From assembly GCA_016200385.1 (NCBI GenBank), contig JACQEV010000204.1:1-11900 (forward strand): a stretch of 11,900 bases of DNA, read 5' to 3'. A program made the translations under genes and the position numbers. Each line of letters begins with the position of its first letter. Position 1 is the first letter of the stretch. Below the pieces are notes generated by a model that saw only the letters and a list, made by a program, of their open reading frames with translations, was not told the origin of the DNA and made no database searches. Below, in pieces: positions 1-11,824 of this stretch. Source of the DNA: Candidatus Methylomirabilota bacterium (lineage in GTDB: Bacteria; Methylomirabilota; Methylomirabilia; Methylomirabilales; Methylomirabilaceae).

Positions 1-22
1 CCAGCCTCCGTGTACGCTTCAT
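1..22 (-). CDS. 5' end of a divergent gene, product unknown
   Basis: On the minus strand an ATG at 22..20 opens a frame reading MKRTRRL before it leaves the window. It is preceded by a perfect AGGAGG at 34..29 with a six-base spacer, which is as strong as any ribosome binding site here. The basic start (Lys, Arg, Arg) would suit a signal peptide or a DNA-binding protein, but seven codons do not allow a family call. It is transcribed away from the transporter cluster, so the non-coding region to its right probably holds promoters for both directions. Confidence 0.6.
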
Positions 23-28
23 TCGATT

Positions 29-34
29 CCTCCT
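29..34 (-). promoter_or_regulatory. Shine-Dalgarno of the left-edge divergent gene
   Basis: AGGAGG read on the minus strand, six bases before the ATG at 22..20. It is the main reason to believe that a gene starts at the left edge, because only seven codons of it are visible. Confidence 0.6.
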
Positions 35-331
35 AGAAGGTAGTTCCGGCTCGCGAGCACACCAGACCAGGTGTATTCGACCCTGCTGCAATGTTACGGC
101 TCAACCCCGGATCGGGCTCCGAGAAGAAAAGTAGCGTAACTTCGAGAACATCAAGCTTTCGAATTGTCCCCTGCAGGAGGAGCCAAATCAAGTTGAAAAA
201 ACCAGTTGGGAAAGGACCGTATATGGCGTACCTCCTGAGTGATCTTTGCATCGGTGCCCGATGAAGAGCCGGGATCCCGCTCGTCATATTCGAGCACGCG
301 ATGAAGTATATCAGGGGACAGAGATATAGAT

Positions 332-372
332 GGAGGGGCGGGCGTCCGACCCCGGAGGGTGCTTTCCCCTCC
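332..372. repeat. GC-rich inverted repeats with a shared right arm
   Basis: GGAGGG at 354-359 can pair with CCCTCC at 367-372 across a seven-base loop. GGAGGGG at 332-338 can instead pair with CCCCTCC at 366-372, using the same right arm, so the two stems exclude each other. No T-run follows, so neither is a standard terminator. A -10-like TATAAG follows at 378-383. The function is unknown and chance is possible in GC-rich DNA. Confidence 0.3.
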
Positions 373-570
373 CCCGGTATAAGAGAAAACAAGCCTTCCC
401 TTCTTCCCCACGACTTGCTATGCGCTGAGAAGCTCTTATGGGGGCGCGCCGGGTGGCAAGCTCGAATTCGTGAGATTACGCGCACCCCCTGTGTTGGAAT
501 CGCCGCTGCATTCGGTTAAGTACTAGTATTTCTCGAGTGCGGTTTTGCCTTTGGGCTGAGCACTTTACTC

Positions 571-621
571 ACTGAGGCTGGGGCAATGAGCTTTGGACTG
601 AGGCTTGCTTGCTCAAAGCCT
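571..621 (+). repeat. Direct repeat ACTGAGGCT and a hairpin upstream of the cluster
   Basis: ACTGAGGCT occurs at 571-579 and again at 597-605, 26 bases start to start. The second copy runs into a perfect hexamer hairpin, AGGCTT at 601-606 with AAGCCT at 616-621 around a nine-base loop. It ends 75 bases before the first start codon of the cluster, so it may be an operator pair or a leader-RNA structure. The call rests only on the repeats. Confidence 0.35.
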
Positions 622-683
622 TAACCAGGACCCGTGGGGAATTTGTGCGGTAAGTGAAAGTACCTGTCAAGAACTCCAAACAA

Positions 684-688
684 GAGGG
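684..688 (+). promoter_or_regulatory. Shine-Dalgarno fixing the start at 696
   Basis: GAGGG at 684-688 lies seven bases before the ATG at 696. The in-frame GTG at 654 has no comparable site and would put 14 hydrophilic residues before the signal peptide, so 696 is preferred. Confidence 0.6.
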
Positions 689-695
689 CGACATC

Positions 696-1616
696 ATGAA
701 GTCAAAATGCAGCAGTGCTCGCCACAAAGCAGTGGCTGTCGCAGCGCCCTTTTTAGCGATGGCTGTAGCCTTCACTTGCCTCGGTCTGGCTAGTGGCATC
801 GCTATAGCGCAGCACAGTCAGACTTCTGTCAAAGAGTTCGAGGACTTCGACTCCAAGAATTTCGACCGTTCGACCCACATCGACAACGAATGGTTTCCCC
901 TGAAGCCGGGGACGCGATTCGTCTATGAGGGGTTCACCATCGAAGATGGTAAGCGCCTTCCTCATCGCGTGGTTTTCACGGTCACCGACTTGACCAAGGT
1001 GATCGGCGGCGTGCGCGCGGTCGTTGGTTATGATTTGGACTATAGCGCGGGCCAACTGGCGGAGAAGGAGATTATCTTCTTCGCGCAGGACAACGGCGGA
1101 ACGGTCTGGCACCTGGGTCAGTACCCAGAGGTATACGAGAACGGGAAGTTCGTCGAGGCCCCAGCCTGGATCCACGGCATTCAAGATGCGAAAGCCGGAA
1201 TCGTCATGAAGGCAGAGCCGCGGCTTGGGACACCCAGCTACTCTCAGGGGTTGGCACTCGCGGTCAACTGGACGGACCGCGGGGTGGTGTACCAGGTGGG
1301 CCAGAAGGCCTGTGTTCCCTTGAAGTGCTACGAGGACGTTCTGGTGATCGACGAATCCAGCAGGGAGGAACCGGGCGCTCACCACCTCAAGTACTATGCC
1401 CGCGGCGTGGGTAATGTTCGAGTCGGCTGGAGAGGTGAGGGAGATAAAACGAGAGAGACCCTAGAGCTGGTCAAAGTCGTGCAGCTCGGGCCACAGGCCC
1501 TAGCGGCGGTTCGCGCGGAGGCGCTGGAACTGGAGAAGCGCGCCTACAAGATCAGCAAGAAAGTGTACGTTCACACGACACCGGCAGAGCATACGCCTGG
1601 CGCCAAAGGTCAATAG
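696..1616 (+). CDS. Exported protein of unrecognised family (HIDNEWFPL motif)
   Basis: A 306-residue protein with a good signal peptide: a basic start (Lys2, Lys4, Arg9, Lys11), a hydrophobic core at about 12-37 and a probable cut after AIA at residue 38. The mature part opens with THIDNEWFPLKPGTRFVYEG at about 60-79, a motif I associate with uncharacterised secreted proteins of several phyla; I know no assigned function. Most of residues 70-260 reads as alternating beta-type sequence. Cys206 and Cys211 form a CxxxxC pair that could make a disulfide or bind metal in the periplasm. Residues from about 265 look helical and charged. It is the first gene of the cluster, 25 bases before the RND permease, which suggests an accessory periplasmic role such as substrate binding or sensing. 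That role is inferred from position only. Confidence 0.75.
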   Translation: MKSKCSSARHKAVAVAAPFLAMAVAFTCLGLASGIAIAQHSQTSVKEFEDFDSKNFDRSTHIDNEWFPLKPGTRFVYEGFTIEDGKRLPHRVVFTVTDLTKVIGGVRAVVGYDLDYSAGQLAEKEIIFFAQDNGGTVWHLGQYPEVYENGKFVEAPAWIHGIQDAKAGIVMKAEPRLGTPSYSQGLALAVNWTDRGVVYQVGQKACVPLKCYEDVLVIDESSREEPGAHHLKYYARGVGNVRVGWRGEGDKTRETLELVKVVQLGPQALAAVRAEALELEKRAYKISKKVYVHTTPAEHTPGAKGQ

Positions 1617-1641: not shown

Positions 1642-4600
1642 ATGGTGCGTTGGATTGTTGGGTCTAGCATGAAGTTTCGTCTCGTGGCGGTCGCGCTCGG
1701 GGTGTTGCTGATTGTCTTCGGCTTCACACAGTTTGAAAAAATGCAGGTGGATGCCTTGCCCGAGTTCTCGCGGCCGTATGTGGAGATTCAAACCGAGGCC
1801 CTCGGGCTTTCCGCCCAAGAAGTGGAAGCTATGATCACCACTCCCCTGGAGGCGGACATGCTCAATGGGATGCCATGGGTGGAGGAGATCCGTTCCATGT
1901 CGCTTCCCGGCCTGTCTTCCGTCATTCTCGTCTTCGAGAAAGGGACGGACCTCATGCGTGCCCGGCAAGTGGCGCAGGAGCGCCTCGTAGGCGTGTTTGC
2001 GCTGCCGAATGTGTCGAAACCCCCTACCATGATCAATCCCGTCTCCTCGACCAGCCGGTGCATGGTGATCGGACTGACCTCCGACAAACTGTCCCTCATT
2101 GAAACTTCGGTGCTCGCCCGATGGACGATTCTGCCCCGCTTGATGGGCTTACCCGGCGTGGCAAATGTCTCCATTTGGGGTGAGCGGAAGTGGCAGTTGC
2201 AGGTGCAAGTGAATCCGGAACATTTGAAGAATGAGAATGTTACGTTGATGCAGGTGATCAAGACCGCCGGCAACGCGTTGTGGGCATCGCCATTGACCTT
2301 TCTAGAAGCCTCGACGCCTGGTACCGGCGGGTGGATCGACACGCCCAGCCAAAGAATCGGGATCCGGCACCTCCAGCCCATCCAAAAGCCGGCAGAGCTG
2401 GCCCAATTGACCATCGAGGGGGCACCGTCGAAGCGCCTAGGTGACGTGGCCAAAGTGGTGGAAGACCATCAACCGCTCATTGGGGATGCCATCGTTAAGG
2501 ACGCCCCAGCGCTCATGTTGGTCGTTGAGAAATTTCCATGGGCCAATACGATGGAGGTCACGGAGGAAGTGGAAGAGGCGCTCGAGGCGCTCCGCCCTGG
2601 CCTGTCCGGTCTGGAGATCAACCCCACGCTGTTTCGACCGGCGACCTTCCTCGAGCTGGCGATGGGCAATCTCACCATGGCGATCCTCATTGGCGCCGTT
2701 CTCGTGGTTCTGATGTTCGGCACCTTTCTCTTCAACTGGCGCACCGCCTTGATCAGTACCGTGGCGGTCCTGGTGTCGGTGATCGCAGCCGGGGTTGTGT
2801 TCTACGTGCGGGGAATTCCGGCCAATCTGGTCACCATAGCTGGTCTCATCGTAGCCCTCGGCGTTGTCATCGATGATTCTGTCATCGACGTAGAAAATAT
2901 GGTGCGACGCCTCCGCCAAGCTCGCGAAGAGGGCAGCGATAAATCGGCTATGACCATCATTTTCGAGGCTGCGGTCGAGATGCGCAGCCCTATCCTCTAC
3001 GCGACGCTGATCCTGCTGCTGGCGGTCATGCCGGTAATGTTCCTGGAAGGCTTGGCGGGCTCGATCTTTCGGCCGCTCGTTACCTCCTATGTGCTGGCGT
3101 TGCTCGCCTCCCTGCTGGTTGCGATGACTGTCACGCCGGCGCTGAGCCTGATGTTCTTGCGCAACACCCCACTCCAGGCCGCCGATTCTCCCGTCATGGG
3201 CGTGCTGCGTGGTATCTACAGAGCGCTTTTTGCGTTGGCCACGCGCACACCGCGCTGGGCCTTCGTCGCTATCTGCGCCGTCTTCGTCGTCGGCCTTGCA
3301 TCTATACCATTCCTCCGCCAGGAGTCACTGCTTCCGAACTTCAAAGAAACGGATTTGGTGGTTCGCTGGGAAGGCAGTTCCAGCGCTTCCCATCCGGCCA
3401 TGAGCCGGATCACCACTCTGGCCAACCGCGAGCTGCGGTCCATTCCGGGCGTCCGCAACGTCAGCGCTCATCTGGGGCGCGCCATAACGTCGGATAGGCG
3501 GACCAATATCAATGCCGGCGAGCTTTGGGTCAGCATTGATCCTTCCGCCGACTATGACGCGACGGTGGCCTCGGTTAAGCAAGCGGTGGCAGGTTATCCC
3601 GGTCTGTCTTCGGAAGTGTTGACCTACCTGCAAGCAAAGCTAAGGGAGGAGCTGTCGGGAACAGGCGACTCCCTCGTCGTCCGCGTCTATGGCCAAGACA
3701 TGAATATCATCCGCCAAAAGGCGGAGGAGGTCGAGAAAGTCCTGGCAGGGATCAACGGCGTCATTGGTTCAAAGGTGCAGTATCCAAGAGAAACGCCAAC
3801 TCTAGAAATGGAGGTAGACATCGAGAAGGCCAAACGCTATGGCCTTAAACCGGGTGACGTGCGCCGGGAGGCGGCCTCCTTGGTCTCGGGAATCGGAGTC
3901 GGCAGCCTTTACGAAGAACAAAAAGTGTTCGATGTGGTGGTGTGGGGCGCGCCCGAAACCCGCGACAGTCTGACCCACGTTCAAGACCTTCTGATCGACA
4001 CGCCCTCGGGGGGTCACGTGAGCTTGAAGGACGTAGCTGCGGTGCGCATCGTGCCAGGCGCCACGGTGATCAACCGAGATGCCGTTGCGCGTCGCATGGA
4101 CGTGACGGCCAACGTGCGTGGACGTGATCTCGCCGCTGTCGCGGCTGATGTCAAACGCGGCATCGGACAAATCAACTTCCCGCTGGAGTATCGTGCGGAG
4201 CTGTTGGGAGAGTATGCGGAGCGGCTCGCGGCCCAGAAGCGCTTGCTGGCTATTGCGATAGCCGCTGCCATCGGGATTCTCCTGCTCCTGCAGGCGTTCT
4301 TCAGGAACTGGGGCCTGGCTGCAGCCGTCTTCCTGACCCTGCCAGTGGCCTTGGTGGGCGGTGTGCTGGCCGCACTCTTGACCGGCGGCGGCCTTCTCTC
4401 ATTCGGTTCTATCGTTGGTTTCGTCGCGGCGTTCGGAATCGCTCTTCGCAACGCTCTCACGCTGGTGAGCCGCTATCGGCAGCTCGAGCAGCACGATGGC
4501 AAGGCTTTTGGCCCCGAGCTGGTCCAGCGCGGCACCCAAGAGCGGTCTGCGCCGGTCCTGATGATTGCCATAACGACAGCACTGGCCTTCCTGCCCTTGG

Positions 4601-4869
4601 CGCTATTCAGCAACAGAGCCGGCCTCGAGATCGCGCGCCCGATGGCCATCGTCGTTCTCGGTGGCCTGGTGACGACGACGCTCCTCACCCTGCTCGGTAT
4701 CCCCGCCATGTACCTGCTGTTTGGCGCTGCCCGTGAACGAGACCTTGGCCTGGAAGAGGTCCCGGCCACAGGAATTAATGAAGGCATGGTGTTCGCTGAC
4801 AACGAGCCGGAGGCGGCCACGGGGAGAAGTGACGAAACGAAGACAAAGGCAAAAGCCGCCTCGGGATGA
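1642..4869 (+). CDS. RND permease 1, heavy-metal-efflux type (CusA/CzcA-related)
   Basis: A 1075-residue inner-membrane proton-driven exchanger of the RND superfamily, full length for the HME branch (about 1030-1070). GGAGG at 1631-1635 sits six bases before the ATG. TM1 is at about 12-31, TM2-6 at about 340-500, TM7 at about 539-558, TM8 at about 868-887 and the last four helices reach about 1027. The two large periplasmic loops lie between TM1-2 and TM7-8. FRPATF at 331-336 leads into TM2. The TM4 relay reads A405-L-G with Asp411, Asp412, Asp416 and Glu418-Asn419: the counterparts of CzcA Asp408 and Glu415 are present, but the first Asp of the CzcA DFG motif is Leu406. Arg936-Asn937 occupies the late-helix site where CusA has a Glu. 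By-eye alignment finds no CusA-like Met trio, so Cu/Ag is not implied. A charged 40-residue tail follows the last helix. Substrate unknown. Confidence 0.93.
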   Translation: MVRWIVGSSMKFRLVAVALGVLLIVFGFTQFEKMQVDALPEFSRPYVEIQTEALGLSAQEVEAMITTPLEADMLNGMPWVEEIRSMSLPGLSSVILVFEKGTDLMRARQVAQERLVGVFALPNVSKPPTMINPVSSTSRCMVIGLTSDKLSLIETSVLARWTILPRLMGLPGVANVSIWGERKWQLQVQVNPEHLKNENVTLMQVIKTAGNALWASPLTFLEASTPGTGGWIDTPSQRIGIRHLQPIQKPAELAQLTIEGAPSKRLGDVAKVVEDHQPLIGDAIVKDAPALMLVVEKFPWANTMEVTEEVEEALEALRPGLSGLEINPTLFRPATFLELAMGNLTMAILIGAVLVVLMFGTFLFNWRTALISTVAVLVSVIAAGVVFYVRGIPANLVTIAGLIVALGVVIDDSVIDVENMVRRLRQAREEGSDKSAMTIIFEAAVEMRSPILYATLILLLAVMPVMFLEGLAGSIFRPLVTSYVLALLASLLVAMTVTPALSLMFLRNTPLQAADSPVMGVLRGIYRALFALATRTPRWAFVAICAVFVVGLASIPFLRQESLLPNFKETDLVVRWEGSSSASHPAMSRITTLANRELRSIPGVRNVSAHLGRAITSDRRTNINAGELWVSIDPSADYDATVASVKQAVAGYPGLSSEVLTYLQAKLREELSGTGDSLVVRVYGQDMNIIRQKAEEVEKVLAGINGVIGSKVQYPRETPTLEMEVDIEKAKRYGLKPGDVRREAASLVSGIGVGSLYEEQKVFDVVVWGAPETRDSLTHVQDLLIDTPSGGHVSLKDVAAVRIVPGATVINRDAVARRMDVTANVRGRDLAAVAADVKRGIGQINFPLEYRAELLGEYAERLAAQKRLLAIAIAAAIGILLLLQAFFRNWGLAAAVFLTLPVALVGGVLAALLTGGGLLSFGSIVGFVAAFGIALRNALTLVSRYRQLEQHDGKAFGPELVQRGTQERSAPVLMIAITTALAFLPLALFSNRAGLEIARPMAIVVLGGLVTTTLLTLLGIPAMYLLFGAARERDLGLEEVPATGINEGMVFADNEPEAATGRSDETKTKAKAASG

Positions 4870-4929
4870 AAAGAGGAGAGGGCGTGCGAGGCGACTTCCA
4901 AGAGATAGACAAACTTGTAGCTCACCAGT

Positions 4930-4935
4930 AGGAGG
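4930..4935 (+). promoter_or_regulatory. Strong Shine-Dalgarno of the mini-adaptor gene
   Basis: AGGAGG nine bases before the ATG at 4945. It gives this gene its own strong ribosome entry after the 75-base gap, the widest gap within the five-gene cluster. Confidence 0.6.
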
Positions 4936-4944
4936 AAACAAGCC

Positions 4945-5391
4945 ATGAAGCACAGTGACCGGTGGTTGGTTGCAGGCCTGATGATTCTGGGTCTGTCACT
5001 GACTGCGTGTCAAAAGGTGGCACGCACTCACGCTGACGAGTCTCCCGCCAAGGTCGAGCGCATCAAGGGGTCGGAGCTCAGCCGTGTGACTTTGACGGAG
5101 AGGGCCATTCAACGGGTTGGGCTCAAGACGGATCAGGTTCGTGAGCAGCGAGTGTCGCGCTCGACCTCACCGCGGATGATCGTGCCCTACGCTTCGTTGA
5201 TCTACGACCCGCGCGGTGAGACCTGGGTGTACATCAGTCCCCAACCTCGAACCTTTGTTAGACATAAAGTCGTCGTCGACTACATTGAAGGTAATATTGT
5301 GGTTCTGAAGGACGGTCCACCTGTCGGCACAGTGGTCGTGACAGTCGGAGCGGCTGAGGTGTACGGCACCGAGACTGGCGTTGGACACTAA
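4945..5391 (+). CDS. Mini-adaptor lipoprotein (membrane-proximal domain of an RND periplasmic adaptor)
   Basis: A 148-residue lipoprotein. The signal peptide ends in a clean lipobox, L19-T-A-C22, so Cys22 should be lipidated and the protein anchored to a membrane. Residues about 47-70 (VTLTERAIQRVGLKTDQVRE) resemble the short N-terminal strand region of HlyD/CusB-type adaptors. Residues about 78-148 match their C-terminal membrane-proximal part: VPYASLIYDP, WVYISPQPRTFVRH, then VVTVGAAEVYGTE and a final GVGH. The barrel, lipoyl and alpha-hairpin domains that normally lie between these halves are absent, and adaptors are usually about 350-450 residues. It lies between two RND genes, 21 bases before the second, so it probably sits on one or both permeases. 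It is too small to reach an outer-membrane channel. I infer a true compact protein rather than a decayed gene because the frame, start and both ends are intact. Confidence 0.8.
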   Translation: MKHSDRWLVAGLMILGLSLTACQKVARTHADESPAKVERIKGSELSRVTLTERAIQRVGLKTDQVREQRVSRSTSPRMIVPYASLIYDPRGETWVYISPQPRTFVRHKVVVDYIEGNIVVLKDGPPVGTVVVTVGAAEVYGTETGVGH

Positions 5392-5412
5392 AACTGCGAA
5401 GGGACACCTACC

Positions 5413-8400
5413 ATGATGCGTTGGCTGGTCGGAAACAGCCTGAAGATTCGTTTCCTGGTGATCGCGAGCGCCGCGGGGTTGATGTACTTCGGTATGGGGC
5501 AGCTTCGCAAGATGCCCGTGGACGTCTTCCCTGAGTTCGCTCCCCCCCTTGTGGAGATTCAGACCGTGTGTCTCGGCCTTTCCGCCGCTGAAGTGGAGGC
5601 CCTCGTTACCGTCCCGCTGGAGCAGGCCCTCAACGGAGTGCCGGGGCTGGACATCATGCGCTCCAAATCGGTCGAACAGTTGTCGTCGGTCAAAATGATC
5701 TTCAAGCCTGATACCGACCTGTTCCGGGCTCGACAAGTGGTGCATGAGCGCCTCTTGGTCATGCCGACGCTGCCAACTTGGGCAGCCCCGCCTGTCGTAT
5801 TGCCGCCCCTGTCGGCGCTCAGCCGGGTCATGAAGATCGGGGTTTCGTCCAAATCCGTGTCTTTGATTGACTTGTCGATGATCAGCTATTGGACCATCAG
5901 GGAGCGCCTCTTACGCGTACCCGGTGTGGCCAATGTCGCCATATGGGGCGAGCGGCTGAAAATGCCCCAGGTGCAAGTCGTGCCGGAACTCCTGAAAAAG
6001 CACGGTGTAACTCTCGAGGAGGTCATGACGGCCACCTCGGATTCCCTGGACGTCGGTATGTTCATGTTTTCAGATGGACATTACATTGGTGCCGGCGGGT
6101 GGATCGACACTCCCAATCAGAGGCTGCAAGTCCGGCACGTCTTGCCCCTCATCTACAAGACCGACGAACTCACCACACCGGATGCGCTGGGGAATATGCC
6201 CGTGGCCGTACGCAATGGCAAGCAACTGTATCTGAAAGACGTGGCCGAGATAGTGGTGGATCATCAACCGATGGCCGGAGACGCTATCATCAACGATGGT
6301 CCCGGCCTTCTGCTTATCGTTGAAAAATTCCCCTGGGGCAACACGTTGCAAGTGACCAAAGGTGTGGAAGAGGCGCTCGATGCATTACGGCCGGGCCTTT
6401 CTAATATCGATATCGACTCCACGATCTTCCGGCCCGCCACCTTCATCGAGATGTCGATCGACAATCTCACCAGGGCGCTACTCCTTGGTTGTCTTCTTGT
6501 GGTTCTGATTCTCGCCTCCTTTCTTTTCGATTGGCGCCCCGCGTTGATTAGTTGCCTGGCGATCCCCTTGTCTTTGATGGGAGCGGTGATCGTGCTCTAT
6601 CTGCGTGGGGCGACCATCAATACGATGGTCTTGGCGGGCCTCGTGATCGCCGTCGGTGTCGTGGTTGACGATGCCATCATCGACATAGAAAACATCATAC
6701 GGCGTCTGCGTCAGCACCGCAAGGAGGCTAGCAAAAAGTCGACTGCGAGAATCATTCTTGAGGCCTCGCTCGAGGTGCGCGGCGCCATCATCTACGCCAC
6801 GCTGATCGATGCCATGACTTTGTTGCCGGTCTTCTTCCTGACGGGCCTGTCCGGCGCCTTCTTCCGGCCTCTGGCCATCTCCTATGCGCTGGCGGTGCTC
6901 GCCTCCTTGTTGGTCGCGCTGACCGTCACCCCGGCCATGGCCCTGATTCTCTTGCGCAATGCGCCGCTGGAGCATCGCGGGTCGCCTCTCGTACCGTGGC
7001 TTCAGCGTAAGTACGAGACGACTCTCGCGCGGATCATCCGCAGACCCCGCGCAGCCTACGTCACCGTCGCTGTCACCGTCTTGGCCGGTGTCGTGACGTG
7101 GCCCCTGCTGGGGCACTCCCTGCTGCCCTCGTTCAAGGAACGGGACTTCCTGATGCATTGGTTGACCAAGCCCGGTACCTCCTGGCCGGAGATGAACCGG
7201 ATCACCATTCAAGCCAGCAAGGAGCTGCGCTCCATTCCAGGTGTCCGCAACCTCGGCGCCCACATCGGGCAGGCCCTGATCATGGACGAAGTGGTCGGTA
7301 TTAATTTCGGTGAGAATTGGGTCAGCGTCGATCCCTCGGTTGACTACGACAAGACGGTGGCCGCGCTTCAGGCAACGGTGAACGGCTACCCCGGCCTCTT
7401 TCGCGACGTGCTGACCTTTCTCAAAGAGAGGATCCGGGAAGTGCTGACCGGCGCCTCCCAAGCCATTGTCGTGCGCATCTATGGCCAAGACCTGGATGTC
7501 CTCCACAGCAAAGGGAACGACGTAAAGGAGGCCCTTAAGGGAATCGACGGCATCGTTGATTTGCATGTGGAGCTCCATGAGAACATTCCACAGATTGAAG
7601 TCAAGCTTGACCTCGCCAAGGCCCAACGCTATGGCCTCAAACCCGGCGATGTGCGACGCGCAGCGGCCGTCTTGGTGGCCGGCGAAGAAGCCGGCGACAT
7701 CCACACTCCCAACAAAACATACGATGTGCAAGTGTGGAGCATACCTGCGGCGCGCAATACTCTGACCGACATCCGCAAGCTGCTCATCGACACACCCGGC
7801 GGCGGTCACGTGCAGTTGCAAGACGTGGCCGACGTGCGCATCACACCGACGCCGAATGTCATACAACATGAAAACCTCAAGCGTCGTCTCGACGTTCGCG
7901 CCAACGTGCGTGGACGCGATCTCGGCTCCGTCGTGGCCGATGTCGAAGCTCGCCTCCAAAAAGTGAAATTCCCACGTGAATACTATCCGGAGCTGGTCGG
8001 AGAGTACAAAGAACGACAGGCTGCCCAACGTAGCATTCTCATCTTTTCGGCAGTCGCTGCGGCCGGGGTTTTCATGTTCCTGTTCACGTCTTTCCAGAGC
8101 GGCCGATTGGCGACTCTATCTTTCTTGACCTTGCCCATGGCCCTGGTGGGCGGCGTGCTCGGGGCGTACCTCGGTGACGGCATCATCTCGCTGGGCTCGC
8201 TCGTTGGATTTCTAACCGTCTGGGGGATTGCCGCACGCAACGGCATTATGATGATCAATCACTTTCAGCATCTGGAGCGGTATGAAGGGGAAGCCTTCGG
8301 TCCCGCGCTTGTCTTGCGCGGGGCGCGGGAACGGCTTTCGCCGATCTTGATGACGACGTTGGCAACAGCACTGGCTCTCGTGCCACTGGTGATTGCCGGC

Positions 8401-8556
8401 AACCTCCCTGGTCACGAGATCGAGCACCCGCTGGCCGTAGTCGTTCTGGGTGGCTTGGTCACTTCGACGTTGCTCAACCTGTTCGTTGTGCCTAGCCTGT
8501 ACTTGCGCTTTGGGTCTAGCCGTAAACCTGACACGTCGAGGCCGCAATTGGCATAA
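5413..8556 (+). CDS. RND permease 2, heavy-metal-efflux type, paralogue of permease 1
   Basis: A 1047-residue inner-membrane RND exchanger, full length. GAAGGGA at 5398-5404 precedes ATG 5413 by eight bases. It is similar to permease 1 along its whole length: both share GGWIDTP, VEKFPW, FRPATF and [10 protein letters not shown] blocks, which points to an old duplication. TM1 lies at about 12-31, TM7 at about 547-566, TM8 at about 875-895. The TM4 motif is A413-V-G with Asp419, Asp420, Asp424 and Glu426-Asn427, again without the CzcA DFG aspartate. Arg942-Asn943-Gly sits in the late helix. No Met relay like CusA Met573/623/672 is apparent by eye. It lacks the long charged tail of permease 1. 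Co-encoding with permease 1 and one small adaptor suggests either a mixed trimer, as in MdtBC, or two pumps sharing the adaptor. Substrate unknown. Confidence 0.93.
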
Positions 8557-8564
8557 AGCAGAAT

Positions 8565-8570
8565 GGTGGA
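8565..8570 (+). promoter_or_regulatory. Weak Shine-Dalgarno supporting the porin start at 8576
   Basis: GGTGGA five bases before ATG 8576. The longer frame starting at GTG 8450 would overlap the permease by more than 100 bases and hide the signal peptide, and ATG 8594 has no site before it. Confidence 0.45.
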
Positions 8571-8575
8571 TTGCA

Positions 8576-9883
8576 ATGCGTTGCCGCTGCCCGATGAGCA
8601 TCTTGCTGGCTACCTTGGCAATCTTTGTGGCTGTATCCCCAGTCTGGGCGGCGATTGCGGCGGTGGATGCAGCCAAAGACGTGGCCTCTGAGGAATGGGG
8701 CGAAGCGGCTTCTCTACCTACTCTTTCCTCAGATCAGTCTTCTCCTCCTTCCCCAGATTCGAAGGTGGGAAATTCGGAAGGCTCGAAAGCGACTCAAGCG
8801 ACAGACCCGAAGCAGGAGACGCCGGTACAACCTGCGTCTGCCAGTGTGCAAGGAGCAGCGAATTCTGCCGTCTCCAATCATAAGCAGAAGAGGATTACGT
8901 TTAAACCCGGATTTCGTTTGCAGCTCCGTGAGGCATACGATCTCGCAAGTGGCCAGAATGACGTTTTTCTCGCTAGGTTGCGACTTAAGGCTAAGGGGGA
9001 GCTTTTCCACGTCATCAGATATTTTGCTGAATTGAAAATCGATAATTTGGGGCGACGTGGGAAAGATCCAAAGGCTCAACCCGAAAACGCCTGGCTCGAG
9101 TATACGGTTACCCGCAACTTCGCTCTTCGTGTGGGATTGTACGACCTGCCTTTTTCCAGGAACGCACTCACGTCAGACTCAAAACTGTTGTTAATTGATC
9201 GTAGTTTGATCAAAGACTCGCTAACCAGTTTCGGGCTGGCGGACAATACCACCGGGCTGCTCGGCCACGGACGACCTTTTGGAGGCCGTTTCGAGTATGC
9301 GGCGGGAATCTTCAATAATGACAGGTTCAGGAGGATTGGAGCTCCTGGACCGAACCGGTCCGATTCCCTGATGCCTGCGGGACGGGTAGTCGTCAATCTC
9401 CTTGATCCAGCCCCACGAGGAGGGTACGCCGATTACCAAAGTTCGTACCTTGGGAAGGGGAAAAGACTGTCCATAGGAACTCATTTTGCACACCTCCGGA
9501 AGGCGCACGACAGCGTCAGTGGATTTAGTCTCTTCGGCTGGGGCACGGATGTCATTTTCTCTTCCGGGCCGTTCACGTTTGAGGGCGAGTACGATCGGTT
9601 GAGGAAGCGGTTGAATGGGGGGAATCCCGATGTGCACGTTGATGGGTGGCATGTTCAAACAGGTTACTTAGTTCGACGGCGCGTCGAGTTCACCGCCCGG
9701 CACCAACAACTCAATCCTGGTGTGCGTGTCCCTGACAAGACATTACGGTGGACCTCCGTAGGTTCAAACGTATACATCCGCGGGCATAACCTCAAGGTAC
9801 AGTTCGACTATACATTCAGGCGGGGGCCAGGGCAGGTCGTCAAAACCGATGTGGTGCAGCTTCAAATGCAGGCTGATTTCTAA
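8576..9883 (+). CDS. Outer-membrane porin, OprO/OprP (phosphate-selective porin) type
   Basis: A 435-residue protein with a signal peptide (core at about 8-22, likely cut after VWA at residue 25). Residues about 26-105 are a Ser/Pro/Ala/Gln-rich, low-complexity stretch. The beta-barrel starts at about 107 with RITFKPGFRLQLR and continues with the OprO/P-type pattern: RLRLKAKGEL, YFAELKID, AWLEYTV, LRVGLYDLPFSR, DNTTGLLGHG, and later FTFEGEYDRLRKR. It ends in Phe435 (QMQADF), the usual outer-membrane assembly signal. The strands are Arg-rich, as suits anion passage, though the family name does not prove phosphate as substrate. It begins 19 bases after permease 2, so it is almost surely in the same transcript. 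This is odd, since RND operons normally encode a TolC-like channel, not a diffusion porin. Confidence 0.85.
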   Translation: MRCRCPMSILLATLAIFVAVSPVWAAIAAVDAAKDVASEEWGEAASLPTLSSDQSSPPSPDSKVGNSEGSKATQATDPKQETPVQPASASVQGAANSAVSNHKQKRITFKPGFRLQLREAYDLASGQNDVFLARLRLKAKGELFHVIRYFAELKIDNLGRRGKDPKAQPENAWLEYTVTRNFALRVGLYDLPFSRNALTSDSKLLLIDRSLIKDSLTSFGLADNTTGLLGHGRPFGGRFEYAAGIFNNDRFRRIGAPGPNRSDSLMPAGRVVVNLLDPAPRGGYADYQSSYLGKGKRLSIGTHFAHLRKAHDSVSGFSLFGWGTDVIFSSGPFTFEGEYDRLRKRLNGGNPDVHVDGWHVQTGYLVRRRVEFTARHQQLNPGVRVPDKTLRWTSVGSNVYIRGHNLKVQFDYTFRRGPGQVVKTDVVQLQMQADF

Positions 9884-10069
9884 CTGATATTCGAGTTCTG
9901 GATTCGAATTCGGCAGTGCTTTCAGAAGTGGAAGAGATATGCTCTCTAATAAGGCGAAATCGAAGAACAAAACAAATCCTCCCGAGCTTGCGGGCCAGCC
10001 GGTGTGGGTTGCTCGGCTCGTCATCCACCTCGCTGAGCCCAGGAGACATATTCAGAAGGTGCGCATTTG
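9884..10069. other. Gap between the porin and the DUF5916 gene, with weak inverted repeats
   Basis: A 186-base non-coding gap, much wider than those within the cluster. CCGAGC at 9982-9987 can pair with GCTCGG at 10011-10016 (23-base loop), and GGCTC at 10015-10019 with GAGCC at 10035-10039 (15-base loop). No T-run follows, so I do not call a terminator. The next gene may have its own promoter here, but I see no convincing one. Confidence 0.3.
10054..10059 (+). promoter_or_regulatory. Shine-Dalgarno of the DUF5916 gene
   Basis: AGAAGG ten bases before ATG 10070. It supports that ATG over the TTG directly before it at 10067. Confidence 0.45.
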
Positions 10070-11824
10070 ATGTCTCGAAAATCCATGTCAGCCTTTATCC
10101 CGCTTGCTGTTCTTTTTCTGGTTGGCGTCCAAGCAGCAGAAAAAGATGAACAAAAGCCCACGCTGCGCGCCGGTGCCCTACCTAAAGAGGGTGTGAAGTT
10201 AGACGGAGTGTTGTCCGAGCCGGCATGGGCTGTTGCTGATGCGATCCCCAATCTGACCACGATTGAACCGGACGAAGGTGGCGTTCCCGCGGGCCAGACT
10301 ATTGTCAAAGTCCTGGCGAACTCGAAGGAAATCATCATCGGCGCTATTTGCCACGATCCCGAACCCACGAAAATCGTATCCTTTTCCAAAGCACGGGACG
10401 CCGAATTGGACGACGAAGATAATATCACGATCGTGCTGGACACCTTTCAGGACGGTCGAACCGGCTACGTGTTTGCCGTTAATCCGAGCGGCGCCCGTTT
10501 CGATGCTCTCGTGAGTCCACAAGGCGGGGAGGTCAACAGCGACTGGGATGCGGTGTGGGAAGCCCGCACTTCACGAGATAACAGTAGCTGGAGCGCGGAA
10601 ATTCGGATTCCAATCCAAAGCCTGCGATTCAAGCCGGGCCTTTCCAGTTGGGGATTCAACGTGCAACGGCGGGTCCAGCGCTTGCAAGAAACCAGCCGCT
10701 GGTCCGGCATCCAACGCGACTACAAGATTCACCAAACGAGCCAAGCCGGAATCTTGACGGACCTGCCGAATTTCGACTTGGGCCTTGGCTTGAGTATCCG
10801 TCCCGCGTTGGTGGGCCGCAGCGAGAAAACAGCTGGACAGAGAACGCATTTTACCGGCGATCCCAGCCTGGACGTCACCCAAAGACTGGGCCCAAACATC
10901 TTGACGTCATTGACGGTCAACACGGACTTCGCCGAGACCGAGGTAGATGCCCGTCAAACCAACTTGACTCGATTCGAGATTTTCTTCCCAGAAAAAAGAA
11001 CCTTCTTTCTCGAGGGCGCAAATATTTTCGAATTCAGCAGCGGATTAGAAGAAGCCATGATTCCGTTCTTTAGTCGCCGCATTGGCCTTTTTTTCGAACA
11101 AGAGGGCAGGCCAGGGGTCGAGATACCCATAGATGTCGGCGGCAAAGTGAACGGACAACTGGGCAATACCAGCGTGGGAGCGCTGGTGGTGCGCACCCGC
11201 AAGGTGGATCATCTCGGGGTGCCCGGCGCGACCATGGGTGTCGTACGGCTCAAACAACATATCCTCTCCGAATCTTCGGTGGGCTTGATTGCCACCGCGG
11301 GCGACCAACTGGGGCGTCCCGGAAGCTGGCTCACCGGCGTGGATTTCACCTACCGGAATTCGCGATTCCGTGGGGACAAGAACCTTATCCTTAGCGTTTG
11401 GGGGCTCGTGAACGGACGCAAGGATCTCCAAGGCAATAAAAGCGCTTTTGGTTTTGTGGTGGATTATCCGAACGACCGGTGGAATTGGACGGTCGCTTCC
11501 AAACGCATCGGTGACGGCTTCGATCCCTCACTCGGTTTTGTGCCACGCAGGGGCGTACACATTTGGGACGGCTCACTCGAGTTCAGACCCCGGCCGGGTT
11601 GGCATCTCGTTCGCCAAATGTTTCATGAAGTGCGGTACTCCGTCGTAAATACTCTGCATTCCGGGTTGCAGAGCTATGCCGTGACGATAAAGCCGTTTGA
11701 CTGGCTCTTGGAGAGCGGCGATCGTTTTGAGTTCAGCGTAACGACGGCAGGCGACAGACTAAGAGAAGAATTTGATGTGTTTGACCGCGTTGTTTCGCAC
11801 CGGATTGATTGGACACTGAACTGA
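10070..11824 (+). CDS. Exported CBM9-like plus DUF5916 protein, 3'-truncated
   Basis: A 584-residue protein with a signal peptide (core about 8-20, cut near VQA at 20-22). Residues about 30-225 form the CBM9-like sandwich, with the typical LDGVLSEPAW at 44-53 and a DDEDNITIVLDTF strand further on. DUF5916 starts at about 235 and shows its signature at 276-318: NILTSLTVNTDFAETEVD, then LTRFEIFFPEKRTFFLEGANIF. Despite the common label carbohydrate-binding, I infer an outer-membrane-associated barrel-like protein with no known substrate. Family members usually run to about 700 residues or more; this one stops just after a block (EFSVTTAGDRLREEFDVFD) that normally lies well before the end. Its last codons and stop coincide with the probable end of an insertion sequence, so the gene is likely disrupted. 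Whether the shorter product folds is unknown. Confidence 0.8.
   Translation: MSRKSMSAFIPLAVLFLVGVQAAEKDEQKPTLRAGALPKEGVKLDGVLSEPAWAVADAIPNLTTIEPDEGGVPAGQTIVKVLANSKEIIIGAICHDPEPTKIVSFSKARDAELDDEDNITIVLDTFQDGRTGYVFAVNPSGARFDALVSPQGGEVNSDWDAVWEARTSRDNSSWSAEIRIPIQSLRFKPGLSSWGFNVQRRVQRLQETSRWSGIQRDYKIHQTSQAGILTDLPNFDLGLGLSIRPALVGRSEKTAGQRTHFTGDPSLDVTQRLGPNILTSLTVNTDFAETEVDARQTNLTRFEIFFPEKRTFFLEGANIFEFSSGLEEAMIPFFSRRIGLFFEQEGRPGVEIPIDVGGKVNGQLGNTSVGALVVRTRKVDHLGVPGATMGVVRLKQHILSESSVGLIATAGDQLGRPGSWLTGVDFTYRNSRFRGDKNLILSVWGLVNGRKDLQGNKSAFGFVVDYPNDRWNWTVASKRIGDGFDPSLGFVPRRGVHIWDGSLEFRPRPGWHLVRQMFHEVRYSVVNTLHSGLQSYAVTIKPFDWLLESGDRFEFSVTTAGDRLREEFDVFDRVVSHRIDWTLN

What the first reader, a model, noticed from the sequence alone, without database searches (positions are those of the whole stretch)
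1642..9883. RND operon with two permeases, a mini-adaptor and a porin instead of a standard tripartite pump
Seen: two full-length HME-type RND permeases flank a 148-residue lipoprotein, and an OprO/P-like porin follows 19 bases after the second. Known: HME-RND systems such as CusCBA and CzcCBA encode one permease, a full adaptor and a TolC-like channel. Neither a full adaptor nor such a channel is here. Inferred: the permeases may move substrate only between inner membrane and periplasm, with the porin handling outer-membrane passage, or they may borrow partners encoded elsewhere. The tight spacing argues that the odd set is functional.
Basis: partly seen in the sequence, partly recalled or inferred. 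Interest (0 to 1): 0.75.

Follow-up and report, generated by a model that had tools for sequence, protein, structure and literature searches.

The report
Twin-permease pump with miniature adaptor
Bacteria from at least ten phyla, some with no outer membrane, carry an unusual pump operon of two sister transporters around a tiny remnant of the usual connector protein, which suggests a pump that no longer needs an outer-membrane exit tunnel.

Summary
Two RND permeases (P1, P2) flank a 148-aa lipoprotein, and an OprO/P-like porin starts 19 bases after P2. RND–mini-adaptor–RND occurs in 34 of 40 related loci from about ten phyla (five are cut by contig ends, one is an orphan mini-adaptor). Bearers include Actinomycetota isolates; 0 of 8 of their genomes have a TolC-family gene.

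By homology and predicted fold the lipoprotein is only the membrane-proximal domain of a CusB/ZneB-type adaptor. P1 and P2 are sister clades from one duplication and share a docking-domain loop of 36-37 residues (25 in 8 of 9 related single permeases). Those singles have full adaptors and usually a TolC-type gene (8 of 10 loci; 0 of 40 twin loci). P2 keeps its proton-relay residues; P1 is eroded.

The porin is an occasional add-on (window plus three loci). The commoner fourth partner is the unannotated exported protein at 696–1616, with a LolA/YmcC-like predicted fold.

Best reading: a heteromeric, TolC-independent RND exporter acting at one membrane with a minimal adaptor. Heteromerisation, substrate and direction are inferred. 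A published survey of 920 Gram-negative proteomes found tandem permeases only in HAE-1 clade B. New variant of a known kind.

The parts
696..1616 (+). Exported 306-aa protein, no Pfam/NCBIfam family; recurrent dyad partner; predicted LolA/LolB/YmcC-like beta fold
   Evidence: adjacent to the dyad in 15 of 40 loci; genome co-occurrence 10 of 12 against 2 of 87; AF2 pLDDT 88, moderate fold matches
1642..4869 (+). P1: upstream RND permease, faster-evolving paralogue
   Evidence: ACR_tran 596 bits; P1 clade UFBoot/SH-aLRT 100/100
2278..2316 (+). P1 residues 213-225, in the stretch that spans the docking-domain (DN) loop extension
2863..2898 (+). P1 TM4 relay motif VVIDDSVIDVEN
4945..5391 (+). Mini-adaptor: lipoprotein made of the membrane-proximal domain only
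4993..5010 (+). Lipobox LSLTAC
   Evidence: sequence; Cys at this column in 89 of 95 rows of A3
5074..5145 (+). N-terminal half of the membrane-proximal domain
5167..5388 (+). C-terminal half of the membrane-proximal domain; in longer adaptors the other domains lie between the two halves
5413..8556 (+). P2: downstream RND permease, conserved paralogue
   Evidence: ACR_tran 729 bits; P2 clade 100/100; 62-67% identity to P2 of eight Actinomycetota isolates
6046..6084 (+). P2 residues 212-224, in the stretch that spans the docking-domain (DN) loop extension
6658..6693 (+). P2 TM4 relay motif VVVDDAIIDIEN
8224..8247 (+). P2 TM10 GIAARNGI, Arg at the AcrB K940 position
8576..9883 (+). OprO/P-like porin, occasional diderm accessory
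   Evidence: porin relatives after P2 also in L040, L041 and L205
10067..11824 (+). DUF5916-like protein, probable accessory; also near dyads in L038, L039, L205

Best explanation
The operon encodes an RND exporter that has lost its outer-membrane coupling. SHOWN by sequence and tree: P1 and P2 come from one duplication of a CusA/CzcA-related permease; both share an extended DN docking-domain loop; the adaptor is reduced to its membrane-proximal domain; the trio travels together across about ten phyla, including bacteria with no detectable TolC-family gene. INFERRED: P1 and P2 assemble into a heterotrimer, with P2 the proton-driven transport subunit and P1 a partner that may still hold the central D408-R940 ion pair. 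The lipid-anchored mini-adaptor binds the outer face of the permeases as a CusB-type membrane-proximal domain does and acts as clamp and activator rather than as a tunnel. Substrate is moved from the inner membrane or periplasm to the outer face of that one membrane and, where the 696-1616 type protein is present, handed to it as a soluble carrier of something hydrophobic. In some diderms, as here, a porin and a DUF5916 protein may look after the outer membrane.
Against: No complex was predicted or measured, so heteromerisation is inferred. Window P1 keeps most relay residues (D, D, E, R, R; Ile at T978), so it may be a working pump by itself. Nine of 15 further bearer genomes and the window's genome have OEP genes elsewhere. 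L045 has the mini-adaptor with no dyad; its genome's nearest P2 relative is 27% identical. Some lineages keep a longer adaptor of about 220-301 aa with a barrel-like insert. The partner protein is missing beside many dyads, e.g. all five Catellatospora loci and Nonomuraea. One neighbour hints at metals: a CopC-CopD protein upstream in L051. 0 of 14 same-genus genomes hold the mini-adaptor, so this contig may be transferred or misbinned. Most loci are MAGs.
Confidence: 0.6

Rival explanations
1. P1 and P2 are two separate homotrimeric pumps in one operon, and the mini-adaptor serves one or both.
For: Window P1 keeps most relay residues; no interface was modelled; identity between window P1 and P2 is only about 50%.
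Against: The pair stays together in all 34 loci that have RND genes and are not cut beside the mini-adaptor; P1 relay residues D407, E414, R971, T978 are kept in only 25, 11, 25 and 24 of 34, while D408 is kept in 34 of 34, as expected of a partner; the DN-loop extension is shared by both paralogues; the MdtBC precedent is an active B2C heterotrimer (PMC12802153, passages).
Confidence: 0.25
2. In diderms the dyad borrows a TolC-type channel and full adaptor encoded elsewhere and works as an ordinary tripartite pump; monoderm copies are derived.
For: OEP genes exist elsewhere in the window's genome and in 9 of 15 bearer genomes.
Against: Actinomycetota P2 is 62-67% identical to the window's P2 although 0 of 8 of those genomes have an OEP gene; the mini-adaptor would compete with a full adaptor for the same contact (inference); full adaptors with OEP lie beside the single-permease relatives instead.
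Confidence: 0.12
3. One reading: the porin is the outer-membrane exit of this pump.
For: Porin starts 19 bases after P2; porin relatives after P2 in L040 and L041 and L205, i.e. in Gemmatimonadota and Bacteroidota too.
Against: Not found in 38 of 40 loci, 20 of 20 stretches and 6 of 7 twin loci, many with flanks of several kb, by a profile built from three porins. A porin is a diffusion channel, so it need not touch the pump (general knowledge).
Confidence: 0.15
4. The mini-adaptor is not an adaptor but an unrelated small stabiliser like mycobacterial MmpS.
For: Similar logic: a small anchored beta protein with an RND transporter; MmpS protomers stabilise the MmpL trimer (PMC12803245, passages).
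Against: Sequence homology to full CusB-like adaptors, including intermediates of about 220-301 aa, and fold match to CusB/ZneB; no Pfam match to a mycobacterial family. The functional analogy may still hold.
Confidence: 0.05

Closest known systems
CusCFBA / ZneCBA (HME-RND tripartite pumps)
   Same: Permeases are nearest in the PDB to ZneA and then CusA; mini-adaptor fold is the CusB/ZneB membrane-proximal domain
   Different: Two paralogous permeases, no hairpin/lipoyl/barrel in the adaptor, no OMF beside it; H/F/E instead of the CusA Met triad in P2; below the TIGR00914 cut-off
MdtABC / MuxABC (HAE-1 two-permease pumps)
   Same: Two paralogous permeases at about 50% identity from one ancient duplication
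   Different: A separate duplication in a CusA-related lineage; adaptor gene lies between the permeases and is MP-only; bearers include monoderms. PMC10872679 (passages) found tandem permeases only in HAE-1 clade B among 920 Gram-negative proteomes
BesA of Borrelia BesABC
   Different: BesA keeps lipoyl and beta-barrel domains and works with the channel BesC; the mini-adaptor has only the MP domain
MmpS-MmpL (mycobacterial RND)
   Same: Small anchored beta-domain protein stabilising an RND transporter (PMC12803245, passages); that no TolC-type channel is involved is recalled
   Different: Different RND family (recalled); no Pfam match of the mini-adaptor to a mycobacterial family; MmpS itself was not compared
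YknWXYZ-type adaptors of Gram-positive bacteria
   Same: Adaptor proteins in bacteria with no outer membrane (PMC4338810, passages)
   Different: ABC transporters; those adaptors are said to keep the general architecture with the hairpin (same passages)

Membership tests
HME-RND (CusA/CzcA, TIGR00914) | Score above the curated cut-off (701.45 bits) | tested here: not met
   465 (P1) and 582 (P2) bits
HME-RND (CusA/CzcA, TIGR00914) | CusA methionine triad M573/M623/M672 (CusA subgroup only) | tested here: not met
   P2 has H/F/E in 34 of 34; P1 variable
Tripartite RND efflux pump | RND permease with proton-relay residues | tested here: met
   P2 D407, D408, R971, T978 34 of 34, E414 33 of 34, K940 replaced by Arg 34 of 34
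Tripartite RND efflux pump | Full adaptor (MP, barrel, lipoyl, hairpin) beside the permease | tested here: not met
   0 of 40 twin loci by a ten-row profile
Tripartite RND efflux pump | TolC-type OMF beside it or in the genome | tested here: not met
   Beside it: 0 of 40 loci. In the genome: 0 of 8 isolates, but present elsewhere in 9 of 15 other genomes and in the window's own
Two-permease heteromeric RND (MdtBC type) | Two paralogous permeases from one duplication | tested here: met
Two-permease heteromeric RND (MdtBC type) | Same duplication as MdtB/MdtC | tested here: not met
   MdtB and MdtC pair with each other, outside the P1/P2/S clade
Two-permease heteromeric RND (MdtBC type) | Physical heterotrimer | not testable with these tools
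   needs co-purification or cryo-EM
Membrane fusion / periplasmic adaptor proteins | Membrane-proximal domain | tested here: met
Membrane fusion / periplasmic adaptor proteins | Lipoyl, beta-barrel and hairpin domains | tested here: not met
   148 aa here; 99 of the 120 listed relatives are 147-150 aa; a barrel-like insert is kept only in intermediates
MmpS (mycobacterial RND accessory) | Sequence or fold of MmpS | not tested
   only the absence of a Pfam match; no direct comparison made
LolA/LolB/YmcC-like fold (696-1616 protein) | Predicted fold | tested here: inconclusive

The most novel reading that the evidence does not exclude
A distinct class of RND exporter shared by diderm and monoderm bacteria: a heteromeric pair of paralogous permeases clamped by an MP-only adaptor through a rebuilt docking domain, delivering a hydrophobic substrate at the outer face of a single membrane to a LolA-like soluble carrier. 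It would be a TolC-type pump lineage that was uncoupled from the outer membrane once, early, and then spread across phyla.
Probability: 0.35. Interest if true: 0.85.

Novelty: new variant of a known kind. Interest (0 to 1): 0.72.

Why it matters
Adaptors are usually explained as the bridge to TolC. PMC4338810 calls the role of adaptors in Gram-positive envelopes a significant gap in knowledge and the kept hairpin puzzling (passages). Here evolution seems to have done the reverse experiment: hairpin, lipoyl and usually barrel are gone, the membrane-proximal domain stays under strong constraint, and the set lives in bacteria in which no TolC-family gene was found. That makes it testable what an adaptor does to an RND pump apart from docking a channel. 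It also adds a second two-permease lineage, outside HAE-1, partly in phyla that the published survey of tandem permeases left out (Actinobacteria, Chloroflexi).

Tried and rejected
Porin as core component: not borne out by the counts. Chance neighbours: rejected by the conserved order. Metal pump: not supported, since P2 lacks the CusA Met triad and the proteins score below the HME cut-off, but ZneA-type acidic sites were not examined, so metals are not excluded; single neighbours that would fit metals are a CopC-CopD-cytochrome protein in L051 and one FTR1 iron permease among the Actinomycetota neighbours. Substrate from neighbours: Pfam tallies of 95 neighbours of 14 Actinomycetota loci and 113 neighbours of other loci showed no recurrent metal or drug gene among the 25 families listed of 68 and of 103; families beyond the 25 were not seen, and the ORF picking was greedy and imperfect in GC-rich loci. 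The PG-binding protein beside a MacB-like exporter in L053 may be an ABC-type adaptor; my adaptor profile did not match it. Misbinning: tetranucleotide and GC comparison was uninformative (window correlation 0.37 against 0.25-0.49 among own contigs; GC 0.577 against 0.58-0.64; four of 20 stretches gave GC 0 and were not usable). PDB sequence search with the mini-adaptor profile gave only a chance hit. Rfam and tRNA scans of the window: nothing. Paper searches for such a system: I recognised no paper describing it in the listings; subscription journals are mostly not held.

Caveats on counts: the OEP, adaptor and porin profiles were built from few sequences (4, 10 and 3), and seven of the ten adaptor rows are relatives found through the mini-adaptor itself. 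The two single-permease loci without an OEP match (L074, L080) are cut by the contig end beside the adaptor; the L077 match is on the other strand. Many twin loci have short flanks. Loci overlap in part with earlier ones (L168 is L036, L169 is L037; L174 and L175 share contig lengths with the records of L048 and L059). The Fisher values ignore relatedness. In one search loop lengths are capped by the fixed alignment width. The P1 and P2 sets left out ORFs of 900 aa or less. could not return proteins longer than about 259 aa.
Full report
WHAT IS THERE. The window (whole contig C377, 11900 bases, of an 81% complete MAG) carries, all on the + strand: an exported protein (696-1616), RND permease P1 (1642-4869), a 148-aa lipoprotein (4945-5391), RND permease P2 (5413-8556), an OprO/P-like porin (8576-9883) and a DUF5916-like protein (10067-11824). 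The host is probably of the NC10/Methylomirabilota order: G026 ('same order') and G035 ('same class') are, by contig coordinates, the NC10 CSP1-5 and Rokubacteria genomes of L053 and L036 (inference). None of 14 same-genus genomes holds the mini-adaptor or the 696-1616 protein, so the contig is either transferred or misbinned, or the others have lost it. Composition did not decide this.

CONSERVATION. A protein search with the lipoprotein found 484 relatives at E up to 1e-3 among 535 candidates; 99 of the 120 listed are 147-150 aa. A scan of named genomes gave 50 loci. In 40 of them (L032-L071) the match is to the twin type; 34 show RND-mini-RND in order on one strand, some with a permease cut at a contig end; 5 (L043, L052, L061, L070, L071) are cut beside the mini-adaptor; 1 (L045, Ignavibacterium) has a mini-adaptor without the dyad. 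Record titles, or NCBI ranks for them, name Methylomirabilota/NC10, Rokuibacteriota, Nitrospirota, KSB1, Gemmatimonadota, Bacteroidota, Chloroflexota, Planctomycetota, Latescibacterota, Deinococcota (Trueperaceae), Thermodesulfobacteriota and Actinomycetota. Most are MAGs, but eight are Actinomycetota isolates (Cryobacterium x2, Catellatospora x5, Nonomuraea), and all eight hold both permeases side by side, P2 at 62-67% identity to the window's. Sampled prevalence: 15 of 396 Actinomycetota, 8 of 301 Chloroflexota, 12 of 99 relatives, the own genome included. In Bacteroidota 11 of 296 matched, but only 2 over the whole mini-adaptor; the other nine match parts of 360-606 aa frames.

TWO PERMEASES FROM ONE DUPLICATION. 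In the careful tree (33 rows, DN-loop columns left out) P1, P2 and P1+P2 are each supported 100/100, inside a wider clade with the single permeases S (the quick tree of 63 rows agrees). MdtB/MdtC lie far outside, so this is a second, independent permease pair. P2 sequences are more alike (mean 63%) than P1 (50%).

DOCKING LOOP. The loop aligned to AcrB 210-240, in the domain that meets adaptor and channel, is 36-37 residues in all 34 P1 and 34 P2; among 9 single permeases it is 25 in eight and 31 in one, and 25-31 in 4 references. A second, partly overlapping set gave 36-37 in 48 of 48 twin permeases and 25 in 3 of 3 singles. That this loop reaches into the neighbouring protomer in AcrB is recalled, not tested; it is why I suspect a role in P1-P2 assembly.

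CATALYTIC RESIDUES (34 of each, the window's included). P2: D407 34, D408 34, E414 33, Arg at K940 34, R971 34, T978 34; at the CusA Met-triad positions H, F, E in 34 each (an exception in the second set: L178 has A for F). P1: D407 25, D408 34, E414 11, Arg at K940 32, R971 25, T978 24, with variable triad positions. Window P1 has D, D, E, R, R and Ile at T978. So P2 is fully equipped, while P1 drifts but keeps its central D408-R940 pair in nearly all.

NO CHANNEL, NO FULL ADAPTOR. An OEP profile found a gene in 8 of 10 single-permease loci and 0 of 40 twin loci, then 3 of 3 singles and 0 of 7 twin loci and 0 of 20 further stretches. Genome-wide, 0 of 8 Actinomycetota isolates and 9 of 15 other bearers have PF02321 genes; the six without are five Chloroflexota and the Trueperaceae MAG, which may be incomplete. 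The window's genome has OEP genes on other contigs, so borrowing is open there.

PARTNERS. The 696-1616 family is large (4330 scored relatives, candidates capped at 7996) and unannotated. It lies within 650 bases on the same strand in 15 of 40 twin loci (L053 only weakly, 42 bits; a weak match in L035 in a frame that overlaps P2 is not counted) and in 0 of 10 single loci; strong matches stand next to a dyad or its P2 in 15 of the 20 stretches (four of these repeat earlier loci) and in 4 of 7 twin loci. Among 99 relatives, 10 of 12 mini-adaptor genomes have a strong match against 2 of 87 others (Fisher 2.7e-10, relatedness ignored), and in 9 of the 10 both hits are on one contig. Its model (pLDDT 88) resembles YmcC-like, DUF1849 and LolA/RseB folds, a moderate match. 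The porin follows P2 in the window, L040 (with the partner gene in between), L041 and L205; DUF5916 is near in the window, L038, L039 and L205.

MECHANISM. Best supported: a proton-driven heteromeric RND pump acting at the inner membrane only, in which the mini-adaptor clamps and activates the permeases and a soluble carrier may take over the product. The domain loss, the duplication, the loop and the lack of neighbouring channel genes are shown; assembly, direction and substrate are inferred.

LITERATURE. MdtB2C is the active form of the known two-permease pump (PMC12802153, passages), and MdtB and MdtC have split roles (PMC4338810, passages). The MdtBC duplication is dated before the proteobacterial split (PMC7015380, abstract and passages). 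BesA lacks only the hairpin (PMC3807786, abstract and passages). PMC10872679 (passages) searched 920 Gram-negative proteomes, left out Actinobacteria, Chloroflexi and Firmicutes other than Negativicutes, and found 203 tandem permease repeats exclusively in HAE-1 clade B; a pair with an adaptor gene in between may have escaped its definition. The passages of PMC8277102 that I saw (12 of 31 places) mention two-permease MdtABC and hairpin-less BesA, not this system.

Noticed in passing
L045:9935-10429: Orphan mini-adaptor in an Ignavibacterium MAG chromosome without the dyad; nearest P2 relative in that genome is 27% identical.
   Followed up: partly
L179:10943-11554: A second mini-adaptor-like ORF upstream of P1, so that one dyad has two.
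   Followed up: no
L038:19451-20426: A second, longer mini-adaptor-like ORF about 5.6 kb downstream of the dyad.
   Followed up: no
L053:15606-19033; L063:15418-18860: A peptidoglycan-binding-domain protein and a MacB-like ABC exporter follow the dyad and its partner protein in L053; ORFs of like size and order in L063.
   Followed up: partly
L051:3615-5960: A CopC-CopD-cytochrome c fusion protein just upstream of a dyad in an Anaerolineae MAG.
   Followed up: no
window 654-1616 family: A large unannotated exported-protein family (4330 scored relatives), with about 560-aa forms and one listed member carrying PF03413 (PepSY, name recalled).
   Followed up: partly
window 1-650: Only two short overlapping minus-strand ORFs (150 and 86 aa), not tested by homology; the contig begins here and GC (0.54 in 1-1000) is lower than in the permease genes.
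   Followed up: no
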